52,188 bases of DNA from an uncultured Lachnospiraceae bacterium (lineage in GTDB: Bacteria > Bacillota > Clostridia > Lachnospirales > Lachnospiraceae): the NCBI GenBank assembly GCA_902785985.1, contig CADABA010000022.1:1-52188 (forward strand), given 5' to 3'. The notes beneath the pieces were generated by a model that had not been told where the DNA came from, made no database searches, and saw nothing but the letters and a program-made list of their open reading frames with translations. Below, one piece after another: positions 9,292 to 38,718 of the stretch (the stretch's first letter is position 1; every line of letters begins with the position of its first letter). The translations under genes and the position numbers were made by a program.

Positions 9292-9478
9292 TTTATCTCA
9301 GTGGGGAAGACCCCCGCTTCTACAAGCGGCGGGAAAAACAATATCCTGCTCGTCTCAGTGGCGGGTTTCAATCCCCCACTGAGATAAACGCTCCGCGAGG
9401 ATGCGCAGGGATTCGGCTTGGAAGATGTCAGCTTACGCTGACCCGAATCCCGCGCCAATTCTCGCGAGCGAGAATTGA
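9292..9478 (+). repeat. P-T composite repeat, copy A
   Basis: P core 9292-9388 (97 bp) with the perfect 15-bp terminal inverted repeats TTTATCTCAGTGGGG / CCCCACTGAGATAAA, an internal hairpin (CCGCTT / AAGCGG, imperfect here) and the conserved ATATCCTGCTCGTCTCAGTG. The T tail at 9389-9478 has GGGATTCGG / CCCGAATCCC arms around a TCAGC-TTAC-GCTGA hairpin, and ends in AATTCTCGC-GA-GCGAGAATT. Confidence 0.9.
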
Positions 9479-9570
9479 ACTCTGACGCCGAATTCTCGTG
9501 ATTTCAATCATGAGATGAATGCGCAAAGTGAAACCTGGCTCTGACATGGGTTACAAACCTGCGTCAGTAA

Positions 9571-9757
9571 TTTATCTCAGTGGGGAAGACCACCGCTTCT
9601 ATAAGCGGGGGATAGGTCAATATCCTGCTCGTCTCAGTGGTGGGTTACAATCCCCCACTGAGATAAACGCTCCGCGAGGATGCGCAGGGATTCGGTTTGG
9701 AAGAAGTCAGCTTACGCTGACCCGAATCCCGCGCCAATTCTCGCGAGCGAGAATTGA
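9571..9757 (+). repeat. P-T composite repeat, copy B
   Basis: P core 9571-9667 and T tail 9668-9757, nearly identical to copy A about 280 bp upstream. The 90-bp spacer between A and B (9480-9570) carries a degenerate piece related to the Y/T repeats (GAGATGAATGCGCAAAGTG). Copy B is directly followed by R copy 2, giving a full P-T-R array. Confidence 0.9.
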
Positions 9758-9762
9758 AGCTT

Positions 9763-9840
9763 CCGGCGGATCGCAGCCGCGCAAACAGGAAGGTGCTTTG
9801 CACCCTGCGCGGCGCGGCAAGAACGCCGAGGCGTTCTTGA
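9763..9840 (+). repeat. R repeat copy 2
   Basis: Three successive hairpins: TCCGGCGGA; CCGCGCA...TGCGCGG enclosing GGTGC...GCACC; and CAAGAACGC-CGAG-GCGTTCTTG. Completes the P-T-R order with copy B. The gene-free stretch 9228-9900 is thus almost entirely repeats. Confidence 0.85.
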
Positions 9841-9900
9841 TATGAGTTATGTTAACAGAAACCTTGTTTTACGGCGTTCATATGCCGGGGAGGAAAGAGA

Positions 9901-10410: not shown

Positions 10411-10489
10411 TCCGGCGGATCGCAGCCGCGCAAAGAGGAAGGTGCTTTGCACCTTGCGCGGTGCGGCAGGAACGCTGAGGCTTTCTTGA
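10411..10489 (+). repeat. R repeat copy 3
   Basis: Starts immediately after the ispF TGA. The arms CCGCGCAA / TTGCGCGG change together relative to copy 2, which keeps the stem paired. Confidence 0.85.
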
Positions 10490-10491
10490 AT

Positions 10492-10585
10492 CTTCATCGC
10501 GAGATTGTACGCAAGATGAAGGCATGTTTCACTTTGCGCACGTATTTCACGACTGAAGCCGCGGGGAAAATCGCGATGAAGAAAA
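10492..10585 (+). repeat. Y repeat copy 1
   Basis: Bounded by the inverted repeats TTCATCGCGA / TCGCGATGAA, with the shared core CACGACTGAAGCCGCGGGG. Related copies are at 16895 and 29935. Confidence 0.6.
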
Positions 10586-10633
10586 ACCTTTCGTAAACCT
10601 CTGAATGCAGTGCAGCAGAAAGGAGCAGACAGT

Positions 10634-11472: not shown

Positions 11473-11569
11473 TTTATCTCAGTGGGGAAGATCCCCGCTT
11501 CTATAAGCGGGGGATAGGTCAATATCCTGCTCGTCTCAGTGGCGGGTTTCAATCCCCCACTGAGATAAA
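11473..11569 (+). repeat. P repeat copy C
   Basis: Full 97-bp P core with perfect 15-bp terminal inverted repeats and a perfect CCCCGCTT / AAGCGGGG hairpin, 11 bp after the stop of the PHP phosphatase. The T tail is missing; R copy 4 follows directly. Confidence 0.9.
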
Positions 11570-11639
11570 CGGCAGCCGCGCAAAGAGGAAGGTGCTTCGC
11601 ACCATGCGCGGCGCGGCAAGAACGCTGAGGCGTTCTTGA
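11570..11639 (+). repeat. R repeat copy 4
   Basis: R element without its first TCCGGCGGA palindrome, fused to P copy C. Contains GGTGC-TTC-GCACC and CAAGAACGC-TGAG-GCGTTCTTG. Confidence 0.85.
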
Positions 11640-11721
11640 AGTGCCGGGCGGTATCGCCTGCGACAGAAGGACGGGCCGAAATATTTTCAAAATACACTGT
11701 TCGTTGTTTGGAGTCATATTT

Positions 11722-23542: not shown

Positions 23543-24301
23543 ATGAGAGACCTGCAGATGAAAGGATGTGAACATTCTTTGAGAGACACAGAGGAGATGA
23601 GTATCCGGGAAATGGCCGAAAGACTCAAAAGGAAAGATGCTGAGGAGATAAGAGTACGGGAAATGGCCGGAAGACTCAACAGGAAAGATGCAGAAGAGAT
23701 GAGGATCCGGGAAATGGCAGAAAGCTTCTTTAAGGAAGATCTGCAGGCAGATGCAGGACCGGAAGAAGACAGGAGGAACCGTGAGGCTGTAAAGAAAGCG
23801 CAGCGGGAAAAGAATCTTCAGAAAATGAAAAAACTGCTTCTTCTGCATGGGCAGGATATCCTCTTTGCGCCGGGCATGCAGCAGGAGAAGAGCTTTATAC
23901 AGCACGGAAAGGTAAGCGTCTTTGAGCACTCTGTCGGCGTAACTCTCGTAAGCCTTATGCTGGCAGAGAAATTTAAAATGAAAGTCGATACAAGATCTCT
24001 CGTCCGAGGGAGCCTTCTCCACGATTACTTTCTTTATGACTGGCATGATCCGCATCCGGAAGTCGGGCTGCACGGTTTTACCCATGCAAAGATTGCGATG
24101 GAAAATGCCTGCAGGGATTTTGATCTCAACGAGATCGAGAAGGATATGATCGCGCGGCATATGTTCCCGCTCAATCTGAAGCCGCCGAAATACGCAGAGA
24201 GCAGAATTCTGTGTCTTGCGGATAAGATCGCGGCGACCTGCGAGACGATCAGGATTCCCTATTGCGCGGAAGTCATAAGGGAACTGCTGGAAGCCGTGTG
24301 A
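23543..24301 (+). CDS. HD-domain protein with N-terminal 17-residue tandem repeats
   Basis: The C-terminal ~165 residues are an HD hydrolase domain: VFEHSVGVTLVSLMLA (first His), RGSLLHDYFLYDW (HD pair), and HGFTHAKIAMENA and DMIARHMFP downstream. The family often acts on phosphodiesters or nucleotides; substrate unknown. Residues 17-67 are an insertion of three 17-aa repeats (EE-x-x-(I/V)REMA-x-x-L-x-RKDA), charged and helix-prone, encoded by a 51-bp tandem duplication at 23591-23743. The ATG directly follows the helicase stop, indicating coupling. A small Cys-rich ORF and a terminator follow. Confidence 0.8.
   Translation: MRDLQMKGCEHSLRDTEEMSIREMAERLKRKDAEEIRVREMAGRLNRKDAEEMRIREMAESFFKEDLQADAGPEEDRRNREAVKKAQREKNLQKMKKLLLLHGQDILFAPGMQQEKSFIQHGKVSVFEHSVGVTLVSLMLAEKFKMKVDTRSLVRGSLLHDYFLYDWHDPHPEVGLHGFTHAKIAMENACRDFDLNEIEKDMIARHMFPLNLKPPKYAESRILCLADKIAATCETIRIPYCAEVIRELLEAV
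23591..23743 (+). repeat. 51-bp coding tandem repeat, three units
   Basis: Units at 23591-23641, 23642-23692 and 23693-23743. Units 1 and 2 are close at DNA level (CGGGAAATGGCCG and AGGAAAGATGC shared). Unit 3 degenerates at its 3' end. The length is a multiple of three and keeps the HD gene in frame. Confidence 0.85.
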
Positions 24302-30157: not shown

Positions 30158-31564
30158 ATGAAATCATTATATCTGGATCTGGGCATGGGCGCTGCAGGAG
30201 ATATGATCACTGCCGCGCTGCTCGAACTGTTCAACGAAGGGGAGCAGGACGACATTATCTGGGAGCTGAATGACGCGGGAATTCCGGGTACTTTGATCAG
30301 TGCGGAGAAGATCAAGCGGTACGGAATCGAAGGCACGCATGTACACGTGCGTGTTAACGGCACCGAGGAGGAAGATTTTATGGCCTCCTACTCTCGTAAG
30401 CCGATCAGGTTTCTGGATCAATATACGGAGCAGAGAAACGGAGGACGGGCGAAAGTTCAGCAGGGAGGAACTTCCCAGGCGGAAAATGAGGAATACGGAC
30501 ATTTTCACGGCCATGGGCCCCATCCGTACACACCCGAAGGCAGTTCCGGTGCTGACGGACAGAGCCACGATGCGCATGAACATGGTGAACACCATCACGG
30601 AACAGGTCTTTATGAGGTCACGGACATCATAAATCGGCTGCGTTTTTCCATCAAAGTCAAGACGGACATTGTAAATATCTACAATATGATCGCTGAAGCG
30701 GAGAGCACTGTTCACGGTGTACCGGTGACGGATATTCATTTTCATGAAGTCGGAACAATGGACGCAATCATGGATGTCGCGGCGGTCTGTTTTATTATGG
30801 ATAAGCTGTCCCCGGATCAGGTCTGTGCGTCCCCGGTCCATGTCGGGGCAGGGACGGTCGAATGTGCGCATGGCGTTCTGCCGGTGCCGGCGCCTGCTAC
30901 GGCGGAGATTCTTAAGGACGTACCCATATACGGGGGCGAAATTCAGGGTGAGCTCTGTACGCCTACCGGTGCGGCACTGGTCAAGTATTTCGTAAGTGAC
31001 TTCGGCGCAATGCCGACTATGAAAATTGAGAAGATCGGATATGGAATCGGGTCGAAGGATTTCGGACGTCTGAACTGTGTCAGAGCGATGATCGGCGATA
31101 CCAATGAAGCCCGGGAGAACGTTCTCGAGATGACCGCAAATATCGATGATATGACTGCGGAGGAAATCGGATTTGCCATGGAGAGACTTTTTGACGCAGG
31201 CGCGCTCGACGTGTTCACGACCCCGATCGGAATGAAAAAATCCCGTCCCGGAACGATGCTGCATGTTCTGTGCAGACCGGCAAGGCGTGAGCTCCTGGCA
31301 GGAGTGATGTTCAAATACACAACGACACTTGGGATCCGTGAGCAGGAAATGAAGAGACACGTTCTGAGCCGGAAAGTCCGGGAAGTTGAGACAGAGTACG
31401 GAAACGTACGCGTAAAGATCAGCAGCGGGTACGGTGTAAAGCGGAGGAAGATCGAGTACGACGATATGGCAAAGATCGCAAAGGAAAAGGGGATTCCGCT
31501 GAGTGAGGTGAAAAAAAGCGTCGAGAAGGGCATGAAGCCGAGGAAGACGTACAGAATTGATTAA
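30158..31564 (+). CDS. larC: Nickel-pincer cofactor biosynthesis protein LarC (single reading frame)
   Basis: Inserts nickel into the pyridinium bisthiocarboxylate precursor to form the NPN cofactor of lactate-racemase-type enzymes. The 468-aa protein starts LYLDLGMGAAGDMITAALLE, the LarC hallmark, and carries DIHFHEVGTMDAIMDV, CTPTGAALVKYF, and a C-terminal region (NIDDMTAEEIGFAMERLF, KKSRPGTMLHVL). A His/Gly-rich stretch at about 112-150 probably binds nickel. LarC1 and LarC2 are in one continuous frame, unlike the frameshift-dependent version known from Lactobacillus. No larA, larB or larE is nearby. Confidence 0.93.
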   Translation: MKSLYLDLGMGAAGDMITAALLELFNEGEQDDIIWELNDAGIPGTLISAEKIKRYGIEGTHVHVRVNGTEEEDFMASYSRKPIRFLDQYTEQRNGGRAKVQQGGTSQAENEEYGHFHGHGPHPYTPEGSSGADGQSHDAHEHGEHHHGTGLYEVTDIINRLRFSIKVKTDIVNIYNMIAEAESTVHGVPVTDIHFHEVGTMDAIMDVAAVCFIMDKLSPDQVCASPVHVGAGTVECAHGVLPVPAPATAEILKDVPIYGGEIQGELCTPTGAALVKYFVSDFGAMPTMKIEKIGYGIGSKDFGRLNCVRAMIGDTNEARENVLEMTANIDDMTAEEIGFAMERLFDAGALDVFTTPIGMKKSRPGTMLHVLCRPARRELLAGVMFKYTTTLGIREQEMKRHVLSRKVREVETEYGNVRVKISSGYGVKRRKIEYDDMAKIAKEKGIPLSEVKKSVEKGMKPRKTYRID

Positions 31565-31579
31565 AGCTTCCTGCAGAAC

Positions 31580-31648
31580 GCACCCGTGCAAAGAGGCAGG
31601 TGCTTCGCACCCAGCGCGGTGCGGCAGGGACGCCGGGGCGTTCTTGAT
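31580..31648 (+). repeat. R repeat copy 5
   Basis: Lacks the first palindrome; GGTGC-TTC-GCACC and a GGACGCC...GGCGTTCTTGA right arm are present. It begins about 15 bp after the larC stop. Confidence 0.75.
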
Positions 31649-32828: not shown

Positions 32829-33032
32829 AACTACCTCGTTTCTTTCAGTGAGTGTGCTGTATCCTTAAAAGTGAGCAATTGATCGGATACCTTGTGTATC
32901 AGTTGGTCGTGAGGCGGAAGAACTCTGAGAAGGGCGGGCACAGCAAACGGAACCGCTTCTTGAAATCATACTTTATAATCCGGCCGGATAATCGGCCTGA
33001 TCTATTCTTTACCGCACAATATCCGTGAGTTT

Positions 33033-33110
33033 CAAGAACGCCTCAGCGTTCTTGCCGCGCCGCGCATGGTGCGAAGCACCTTCCTCTTTGCGCGGCTGCG
33101 ATCCGCCGGA
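33033..33110 (-). repeat. R repeat copy 6 (reverse orientation)
   Basis: Complete R element with all three hairpins intact, adjoining P copy D. Read on the - strand, the order is P then R, as in copy C. Confidence 0.88.
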
Positions 33111-33114
33111 GGCG

Positions 33115-33197
33115 TTTATCTCAGTGGGCACTGAGACGAGCAGGATATTGATCTATCCCCCGCTTATAGAAGCGGGAGTCTTTCCCACTGAGATAAA
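33115..33197 (-). repeat. P repeat copy D (reverse, internally deleted)
   Basis: An 83-bp P core lacking about 14 bp near its right terminal repeat. Both terminal inverted repeats (TTTATCTCAGTGGG / CCCACTGAGATAAA) are intact. The internal hairpin keeps pairing through a T-G change. Confidence 0.88.
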
Positions 33198-33488
33198 TCT
33201 TGATTTACATGTGCAATGTGATTACACGTCTTTATCGTGAGTATAATTCCGTGATCAGGAACCGGATCTCGCTCGCAGTTCGTGTCAGAGGCAGCTGACA
33301 TATTACCGGATCGAATCCCTGCGCATCCTCGCGGCAAGAACGCCTGGACAGTTCTGATATGCTGCGGCAGACTTGTTTTGCACAGCCCGGGTTTTCCGGT
33401 CTTCATTTTATCACACAGAAACTGGTTTGTCTCTATCTGAGATGGTTATCATCGCGGATAATCCTTAAAAGATACTGGAGTGTTATCA

Positions 33489-33592
33489 ACTAAGGCCTCC
33501 CACACGCATGAACGTGACCGCGACCGGGATTCAAGTCTCGCGAGCGAGACTTGAATCCTTGTGCCTCAGGAATCCGGATGCGGGAAGTTTTT
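33489..33592 (+). repeat. X repeat copy 1 with perfect 15-bp palindromic stem
   Basis: CACACGCATGAACGTGACCG leads into GGATTCAAGTCTCGC-GA-GCGAGACTTGAATCC (33527-33558), then CCTCAGGAATCCGGATGCGG. The flanks match X copy 2 at 36470, while the stem sequence differs. Confidence 0.8.
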
Positions 33593-36380: not shown

Positions 36381-36454
36381 TGATAATTCTGTGAACACGG
36401 CTGTATTGATAATTCTGTGAACACGGCTGTATGGAATTCTGTGAACACCGGCTG
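36381..36454 (-). repeat. 26-bp tandem repeat immediately upstream of the -35 element
   Basis: Two identical units (36381-36406 and 36407-36432) and a partial third (36433-36454) share AATTCTGTGAACAC. They cover about -38 to -110 relative to the start, the position typical of activator sites. Confidence 0.85.
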
Positions 36455-36469
36455 ACTGTAATTTACTAA

Positions 36470-36566
36470 AACTTCCTACACGCATTAACGTGACTGCGAC
36501 CGGGATTCAAGAACGCCGAGGTGTTCTTGAATCCGGGAGCCCGGGAATCTGGATGTGGGAAGCTTT
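36470..36566 (+). repeat. X repeat copy 2
   Basis: Flanks CTACACGCATTAACGTGACT and GGGAATCTGGATGTGGGAAG match X copy 1. The central stem is GGATTCAAGAAC / GTTCTTGAATCC, sharing the GAACGCCGAGG loop region of the R element instead of the GTCTCGC stem. Confidence 0.8.
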
Positions 36567-38391: not shown

Positions 38392-38577
38392 TTTATCTCA
38401 GTGGGGAAGACCCCGCTTCTATAAGCGGGGGATAAATCAATATCCTGCTCGTCTCAGTGGTGGGTTACAATCCCCCACTGAGATAAACGCTCCGCGAGGA
38501 TGCGCAGGGATTCGGTTTGGAAGATATCAGCTTACGCTGACCCGAATCCCGCGCCAATTCTCGCGAGCGAGAATTGA
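38392..38577 (+). repeat. P-T composite repeat, copy E
   Basis: P core 38392-38487 (96 bp, perfect terminal repeats and CCCCGCTT / AAGCGGGG hairpin) with a complete T tail 38488-38577, closest to copies A and B. The rest of the 460-bp gap 38337-38796 holds the rhomboid leader. Confidence 0.9.
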
Positions 38578-38718
38578 ACGGAGCGGGAGGCTCTGTCAGG
38601 CTTCTGCCGGACGATAATTGCCGCATTTTCGCAGCTTACGGGCATAAGCTAGTGCCGAAAATGCAAGATTTGGCTTTAATATTATAGAATCTGACCATAC
38701 AAATGAAAAAAACAGAGT

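What the first reader, a model, noticed from the sequence alone, without database searches (positions are those of the whole stretch)
9292..9840. Modular P-T-R intergenic repeat system with a 97-bp palindromic cassette
Five P copies (9292, 9571, 11473, 33115 reverse, 38392) have perfect 14-15-bp terminal inverted repeats and a conserved internal hairpin. T tails follow in A, B and E; R follows directly in C and D; B has P-T-R in full. The modules are lost separately but never reordered. All five P copies are intergenic, and P or R often begins within a few bases of a stop codon (ispF, the 2570 amidase, the PHP phosphatase, larC). No transposase is present. This looks like a non-autonomous mobile element or a structured 3'-UTR RNA family whose parts insert or delete as cassettes. 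The GGTT(A/T)CAATCC segment and inner hairpin recall IS200/IS605 ends, but the long terminal repeats do not.
Basis: partly seen in the sequence, partly recalled or inferred. Interest (0 to 1): 0.78.

Follow-up and report, generated by a model that had tools for sequence, protein, structure and literature searches.

The report
Guide-matched mobile repeats without transposase
These repeats are small mobile DNA elements in ruminant-gut bacteria that carry a five-letter sequence complementary to the five letters they insert behind, which suggests that they find landing sites by base pairing and borrow an enzyme made elsewhere.

Summary
The five P copies are real and belong to a high-copy family: 59 exact left-end cores in this 78%-complete genome, present in 8 of 42 genomes of one ruminant-gut Lachnospiraceae genus. 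Filled/empty comparisons show insertion directly behind a pre-existing TTTAT or TATAT, without duplication, so 5 nt of the "15-bp terminal repeat" are flanking target. The arm that pairs with the 5' end finishes in a 5-nt complement of that target. Across five left-end families 124 of 151 copies match perfectly (shuffles: mean 63.5, maximum 80); beyond 5 nt pairing is at chance in P. P is a left end; T and R are alternative right ends, both closing in a 20-nt hairpin plus TTGAA/T. The window's "P-T-R" is a P-T nested in an older N-R element. This is the insertion logic of IS200/IS605 single-strand transposons, but the guide follows a long stem, ends are exchangeable, and no transposase was found inside any element. 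An IS200 TnpA co-occurs (5 of 8 P+, 0 of 29 P- genomes), yet shares no end sequence, and IS110 genes are also enriched, so the mobiliser is unproven. A 3'-UTR RNA role is not supported. New variant of a known kind.

The parts
9292..9296 (+). copy A: target TTTAT (flank)
9297..9390 (+). copy A: left end P with guide ATAAA at 9384-9388
9391..9479 (+). copy A: right end T, closing hairpin and TTGAA
9480..9570 (+). left end of an older N-type element, hit by copies A and B
   Evidence: joined flanks match N-R elements L186, L188, L189, L053
9571..9575 (+). copy B: target TTTAT
9576..9669 (+). copy B: left end P
9670..9758 (+). copy B: right end T
9759..9841 (+). right end R of the older N element (ends TTGAT), not part of copy B
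10411..10490 (+). lone R fragment directly after ispF
10491..10586 (+). E-type repeat sequence, reverse orientation
   Evidence: (family D7 for 10515-10586)
11473..11477 (+). copy C: target TTTAT
11478..11571 (+). copy C: left end P
11572..11640 (+). copy C: R lacking its 5' part, fused behind ATAAACG
31560..31648 (+). lone R copy, 5' part divergent
33193..33197 (-). copy D: target TTTAT
33113..33192 (-). copy D: left end P with an internal deletion ending at CCCACTGAGATAAACG
33031..33112 (-). copy D: full R
38392..38396 (+). copy E: target TTTAT
38397..38489 (+). copy E: left end P
38490..38578 (+). copy E: right end T

Best explanation
P-T and P-R are short (about 175-230 nt when complete) non-autonomous mobile elements that work like IS200/IS605 single-strand transposons. 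Shown: the element (CTCAG ... TTGAA) sits immediately 3' of a pentanucleotide that exists in the empty site and stays in the left flank; nothing is duplicated; the left-end stem finishes in a 5-nt complement of that target, and target and guide differ together between families. Inferred: a Y1 (HUH) transposase supplied in trans cuts the folded single strand behind the target and behind TTGAA, and the circle reinserts where its guide pairs with a matching pentanucleotide, preferably on the lagging-strand template. T and R are interchangeable right ends; P, P2, E, N and Q are interchangeable left ends. The IS200 TnpA at G000:C341 (L068) is a candidate, not a proven, mobiliser.
For: Empty/filled pairs: 7 of 107 joined flanks have an exact empty counterpart among the loci held, and 4 more P copies sit in the retained target in front of an older copy. 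Flank conservation is confined to TTTAT in 88 P and E copies. Target-guide complementarity in 124 of 151 left ends, shuffles at most 80; 123 of 145, shuffles at most 76, after dropping one reading at 6 places read on both strands. Compensatory change within E: L236 TTGAT/ATCAA. Same 20-nt closing hairpin format in T and R. Orientation bias 104 of 150 against 53-54% for bare target words. IS608 rule: PMC5934647 (first of six parts of the text read). TnpA of at least 89% identity in 5 of 8 P+ and 0 of 29 P- genomes.
Against: No transposase was found in any element, and no Y1 element shares P, T or R ends. G003, G018 and G023 have P but no close relative of that TnpA beyond a 16-aa fragment in G003; in G035 it is present only as two fragments. 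IS110 genes are enriched in P+ genomes too (5 of 8 over cut-off against 4 of 34, p 0.006), so co-occurrence is not specific, and ancestry was not corrected for. The guide follows a long stem, whereas in IS608 it lies 5' of the hairpin; left and right hairpins differ. 27 of 151 left ends do not match perfectly. Independent target changes are few. The orientation bias is entangled with gene direction. Six of the seven empty sites are paralogous.
Confidence: 0.67

Rival explanations
1. A guided mobile element moved by another enzyme: the target is chosen by pairing with the element or an RNA copy of it, but the catalyst is a different or unknown recombinase (for example IS110-like with a bridge RNA, or IS607-like).
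For: No matching Y1 ends; IS110 genes over cut-off in 5 of 8 P+ against 4 of 34 other genomes (Fisher 0.006).
Against: G005, G023 and G026 have P but no IS110 match. Only the left 5 nt of the target pair; the right flank is not conserved. IS607 serine enzymes were not searched.
Confidence: 0.14
2. IS91- or Helitron-like rolling-circle elements, or REP sequences served by a RAYT.
For: No duplication, hairpin at the 3' end; CTTGA near the end recalls the IS91 target (recalled).
Against: TTGAA is element, not flank: the empty sites lack it. IS91 Y2 genes are in 2 of 8 P+ and 3 of 34 other genomes. No P+ genome has a REP transposase above cut-off (1 of 42 genomes does, a P- one).
Confidence: 0.05
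3. A structured 3'-UTR or small RNA family with P, T and R as domains.
For: Strong folding; compensatory changes in R and T; many copies follow a stop codon.
Against: Empty sites; 47 of 113 copies have the upstream gene on the other strand; G-T and A-C mismatches equally frequent in R (41 and 46, leaving out one constant T-G pair) and T (10 and 10); no Rfam match.
Confidence: 0.04
4. A classical MITE with terminal inverted repeats moved by a DDE transposase.
For: Palindromic look, high copy number, no coding capacity.
Against: The inverted repeat is inside P, not at both element ends; the 3' end is TTGAA; no target duplication.
Confidence: 0.02

Closest known systems
IS200/IS605 family (IS608)
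   Same: Insertion 3' of a short target kept in the left flank, no duplication, internal guide pairing with the target, hairpin near the right end (PMC5934647, part 1 of 6 read; PMC6006769, passages)
   Different: No tnpA; guide lies behind a long stem rather than at the 5' foot of the left hairpin; left and right hairpins differ; exchangeable ends; 5-nt rather than 4-nt pairing
PATEs (palindrome-associated transposable elements) of Haloquadratum and Halanaerobium
   Same: Transposase-free, palindromes near both ends, no target duplication (PMC3119063 and PMC7290912, passages)
   Different: PATE palindromes resemble those of IS605-type elements; no such relative found here
Small mobile repeats (SMR-A) of Haloquadratum
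   Same: About 110 bp, inverted repeats, no duplication, insert into palindromes of other elements, mobiliser unknown (PMC3119063, passages)
   Different: No guide reported in the passages seen; one size class rather than modular ends
BOX elements of streptococci
   Same: Modular intergenic repeats with fixed 5' and 3' modules and a variable middle (PMC3049150, passages)
   Different: boxB tandem arrays; no target-guide pairing described in the passages seen; no sequence comparison made
REP/BIME with TnpA-REP
   Same: High-copy intergenic palindromes linked to Y1 enzymes (PMC6006769, passages)
   Different: Two-ended, larger elements; no GTAG-type tag noticed; no RAYT above cut-off in P+ genomes

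Membership tests
IS200/IS605 (works like) | insertion 3' of a short target that stays in the left flank, no duplication | tested here: met
   7 exact filled/empty pairs and 4 self-insertions among 107 joined flanks
IS200/IS605 (works like) | internal guide complementary to the target | tested here: met
   124 of 151 perfect; 123 of 145 without double readings
IS200/IS605 (works like) | guide at the 5' foot of the transposase-binding hairpin | tested here: inconclusive
   guide lies 3' of the long stem; small hairpins follow it in full R, T and M by eye, but shortened R copies lack them
IS200/IS605 (member) | encodes TnpA | tested here: not met
   right end within 260 nt of the guide in 90 of 109 copies, no right end found for 17, and two next right ends at about 1.76 kb with MecA or DUF1275 genes between; no transposase seen
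IS200/IS605 (member) | similar left and right hairpins | tested here: not met
   T and R closing hairpins differ from P, E and N hairpins (by eye)
IS200/IS605 (works like) | single-strand circle, lagging-strand preference | tested here: inconclusive
   104 of 150 on the G-rich strand; circles not testable here
PATE | palindromes related to those of IS605-type elements of the host | tested here: not met
   modules matched none of 30 Y1 loci except one R that an IS200 element had split off; ends differ
PATE | no terminal inverted repeats, no duplication, no transposase | tested here: met
MITE (DDE type) | terminal inverted repeats and target duplication | tested here: not met
Known RNA family (Rfam 15) | match above gathering score | tested here: not met
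   only a tRNA in the window

The most novel reading that the evidence does not exclude
A distinct class of guide-programmed mobile elements: the guide is the tail of a long left-end stem in which two 5' arms (S1 and the internal near-copy S1') compete for one 3' arm and so could switch between integrated and excised forms; left and right ends are swapped like cassettes; an enzyme unlike classical TnpA moves them; and within one genus the target has been reprogrammed several times (TTTAT, TATAT, TTTAA, TTGAT, CTTTC) with the guide changing to match.
Probability: 0.22. Interest if true: 0.8.

Novelty: new variant of a known kind. Interest (0 to 1): 0.57.

Why it matters
Target choice by base pairing is known for IS608 and has been re-engineered (PMC5934647, part read). 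Here one genus appears to hold a natural series of retargeted elements, guide and target changed together, in high copy and without an enzyme of their own. That makes the rules of retargeting and of mobilisation in trans testable from sequence, and it offers very short insertion units whose address is written in five letters.

Tried and rejected
Rejected readings: classical MITE, 3'-UTR RNA, IS91/Helitron-like, RAYT-served REP (reasons under rivals). IS110-type guiding came up from the listing; its genes are in fact enriched in P+ genomes (5 of 8 against 4 of 34 over cut-off), which I first misjudged and now count as evidence that co-occurrence with a TnpA is not specific. IS607 serine transposases were not searched.

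Autonomous copy: of 109 left ends, 90 have a right end within 260 nt, 17 have none before 4 kb or the end of the locus (several loci end early), and 2 have the next right end at about 1.76 kb (L018, L117). The open frames between there are MecA, DUF1275 and one 225-aa frame without a family match, so no element with its own transposase was seen; the frames near the other 17 were not scanned. Y1 loci of the genus carry other ends.

Not found: P in viral contigs (exact pattern), plasmids, phages. Not used: the gapped pattern (wrongly spaced, 2 matches) and the consensus structure of P (poor fold). The first T collection failed and was repeated.

Selection effects: the 151 left ends remain from 222 anchors after removing the internal second arm of P and duplicate loci; copies without a recognisable right-end start within 22 nt of the guide were not counted; 6 places were read on both strands. 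Many loci were fetched with queries that contain ATAAA or ATAWA, so for P and P2 the guide, not the target, is partly fixed by the search. R loci for searches were picked by me from the list (about 60 places), which was itself capped. All P+ genomes are drafts.

Unexplained: nine R and one T shortenings start directly behind ATAAACG (ATAAACC in L029), and several P deletions end at CCCACTGAGATAAACG. Slippage at hairpin feet and cutting at hairpin tips were thought of, not tested.

Full report
What is there. The five P copies exist at the stated places and are far beyond chance (11 sites of a 16-mer of P with up to 3 mismatches against 0.29 expected). In the host genome (G000, 3.88 Mb in 449 contigs, 78% complete) the exact left-end core CCCACTGAGATAWACG occurs 59 times. 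Over the genus it is in 8 of 42 genomes (59, 33, 18, 13, 11, 6, 6, 5) and in none of the other 34. None of 24 genomes from other families of the order matched P (8 of 61 in all). The right end R is wider: a match in 16 of 42 genomes. P was not found in viral contigs, plasmids or phages.

How it sits in the genome. I joined the two flanks of 107 filled copies and searched the loci held. Seven have an exact empty counterpart. L129 (filled) and L101 (empty) share a unique gene context in two species (...GAATGATATAT^AAAA); L056, L029, L111 and L128 are filled versions of ...TTTAT^TCC; L126 of ...TTTAT^TCTTCATC; L039 of ...TTTAT^TTCC. Nothing is duplicated; in L129 a run of A differs by one, so its end is uncertain by one base. 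Apart from L129/L101 these empty sites lie in other repeats and are paralogous. Four copies (L015, L121, L123, L124) sit in the retained target in front of an older copy, as a target-retaining mechanism predicts. The other 96 joined flanks gave no such pair in the loci held. In 88 P and E copies with a right end the conserved flank is exactly TTTAT (83, 87, 79, 84 and 81 of 88 per position); the right flank shows only a weak T preference.

The guide. So the element starts at CTCAG, and the outer 5 bp of the 15-bp repeat join flank and element. Left ends of five families were collected by anchors that contain neither target nor guide (222 anchors, 151 after removing the internal second arm and duplicates). 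The 5-nt target and 5-nt guide are perfect complements in 124 of 151: P 74 of 87 (73 TTTAT/ATAAA), P2 19 of 20 (TATAT/ATATA), E 14 of 23 (13 TTTAT/ATAAA, one TTGAT/ATCAA), N 13 of 17 (TTTAA/TTAAA), Q 4 of 4 (CTTTC/GAAAG). Dealing targets out anew gives a mean of 63.5 and at most 80 in 5000 shuffles. Six places had been read on both strands; without the worse reading it is 123 of 145 (shuffles: mean 62.3, at most 76). Beyond the fifth letter complementarity in P is at chance (17, 16, 16, 26 of 87); in E and N the sixth letter pairs in about half (12 of 23, 9 of 17). Among the 27 mismatches, five have the TTGAA of another element as left neighbour. These are counts of copies; independent changes are few (P to P2, P/E to N, L236 within E, Q). 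The empty site of N is seen only as a self-insertion (L190), that of Q not at all.

Anatomy. Full-length P, P2, E and N left ends share the order target, S1, hairpin and linker, S1', loop with NCAAWC, S2, guide; S1' is an internal near-copy of S1, so two 5' arms could compete for one 3' arm. Q has only target, S1, loop, S2, guide, and some shortened copies lack the middle; the shortest P keeps TTTATCTCAG joined to CCCACTGAGATAAACG (L250). Of 108 P/P2 left ends 48 lead into full T, 20 into full R, 20 into the spacer M, 9 into R shortened from its 5' side, 5 into irregular T and 6 into none of these. T and R both close in a 20-nt hairpin with an AA/TT foot and a YGAG loop, then GAA or GAT. The last base is T in 16 of 16 N copies and in 2 of 103 P, P2 and E copies with a right end (27 copies without one left out); this may only mark separate lineages. 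Stems of R (79 sequences) and T (36) show compensatory changes (R: C-G 60/A-T 13, C-G 59/T-A 16, A-T 47/G-C 14, T-A 59/C-G 15; T: G-C 22/T-A 11), but G-T and A-C mismatches are equally frequent (R 41 and 46 without one constant T-G pair, T 10 and 10).

The window's 'P-T-R'. With copy B (P-T) left out, its flanks form an N-type left end joined to R, 86% identical over 139 bp to L189, with similar matches to L186, L188, L053 and L023; its R ends in TTGAT as N elements do. Copy A is a second P-T at the 5' end of the same N. So 9292-9841 is an old N-R element with two P-T insertions. Copy D's flanks are 73-75% identical to E repeats over 83-97 bp.

Mechanism. Retained 5' target, no duplication, closing hairpin and internal guide are the IS200/IS605 pattern described for IS608 (PMC5934647, first of six parts read; PMC6006769, passages). 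Orientation fits insertion into the lagging-strand template: 104 of 150 copies lie on the G-rich strand (p 2.5e-6) and 99 of 150 with the majority of coding length (p 1e-4), while the bare target words are 53-54% on the G-rich strand. The bias is moderate and tied up with gene direction. That a Y1 enzyme does it is inferred. Y1 genes occur in 21 of 41 genomes searched. The TnpA of L068 (NCBIfam transpos_IS200) has relatives of at least 89% identity in G000, G005, G021, G026 and, as two fragments, G035, all P+; none in the 29 P- genomes (Fisher 1.3e-4). P+ G018 and G003 have only 65-66% relatives (G003 also a 16-aa fragment at 88%), G023 none; P- G019 has one of 78% and P- G002 a 17-aa fragment at 82%. 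Three copies of that IS with a visible left end follow TTTAT (L155), ATTAT (L157) and TCTCT (L171), and two of the three have ATAAA before the left hairpin, but its ends share no sequence with P, T or R. As a control, IS110 genes over cut-off are in 5 of 8 P+ and 4 of 34 other genomes (p 0.006), so P+ genomes may simply be rich in mobile DNA. IS91 Y2 (2 of 8 and 3 of 34) and RAYT (none of 8 over cut-off) do not follow P.

What it is not. A vertical 3'-UTR RNA family is contradicted by the empty sites and by mixed gene context (up+dn+ 50, up-dn+ 26, up-dn- 21, up+dn- 16). A TIR/TSD MITE is contradicted by the junctions. It cannot be filed as a PATE, because PATE palindromes are related to those of IS605-type elements (PMC3119063, passages) and no such relative was found; it works like one.

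Open. Why shortened copies so often break exactly at the S2-guide-CG core; whether shortened copies still move; what S1' does; which enzyme moves the elements.

Noticed in passing
window 33478-33565 and 36454-36541; L005, L056, L101, L111, L119, L121: Another intergenic repeat family with the site TTTATTCCGGGAG / TTTATTCCCGGTCGC serves again and again as landing site for P, and in the window it carries a lone T- or R-type hairpin at that site.
   Followed up: partly
L068 (G000:C341) 845-1740: An intact IS200-type element is inserted at TTTAT on the strand opposite the guide of an E-R repeat, splitting guide and right end from the left end.
   Followed up: partly
G018, G021, G023, G024 (places, such as G023:C5:12-140): Many short pieces of Y1 transposase genes (profile 2-44 or 87-121), several at contig ends, as if internally deleted IS200 copies or assembly breaks.
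   Followed up: no
window 23581-23740: Three tandem 51-bp direct repeats inside a predicted gene (ORF 23543-24301).
   Followed up: no
G028:C1 (one-contig genome of the same genus): 20 IS110-type genes above cut-off, several clustered at 384-464 kb, in a genome without P.
   Followed up: no
L195, L196, L203, L250, window 33113-33192; L184 and L249: P deletions end repeatedly at the core CCCACTGAGATAAACG, and L184 and L249 carry this core twice in a row, as if it had been added as a unit.
   Followed up: partly
L236 and L247 (G005, G035): E-type left ends behind TTGAT: one with the matching guide ATCAA, one still with ATAAA.
   Followed up: no
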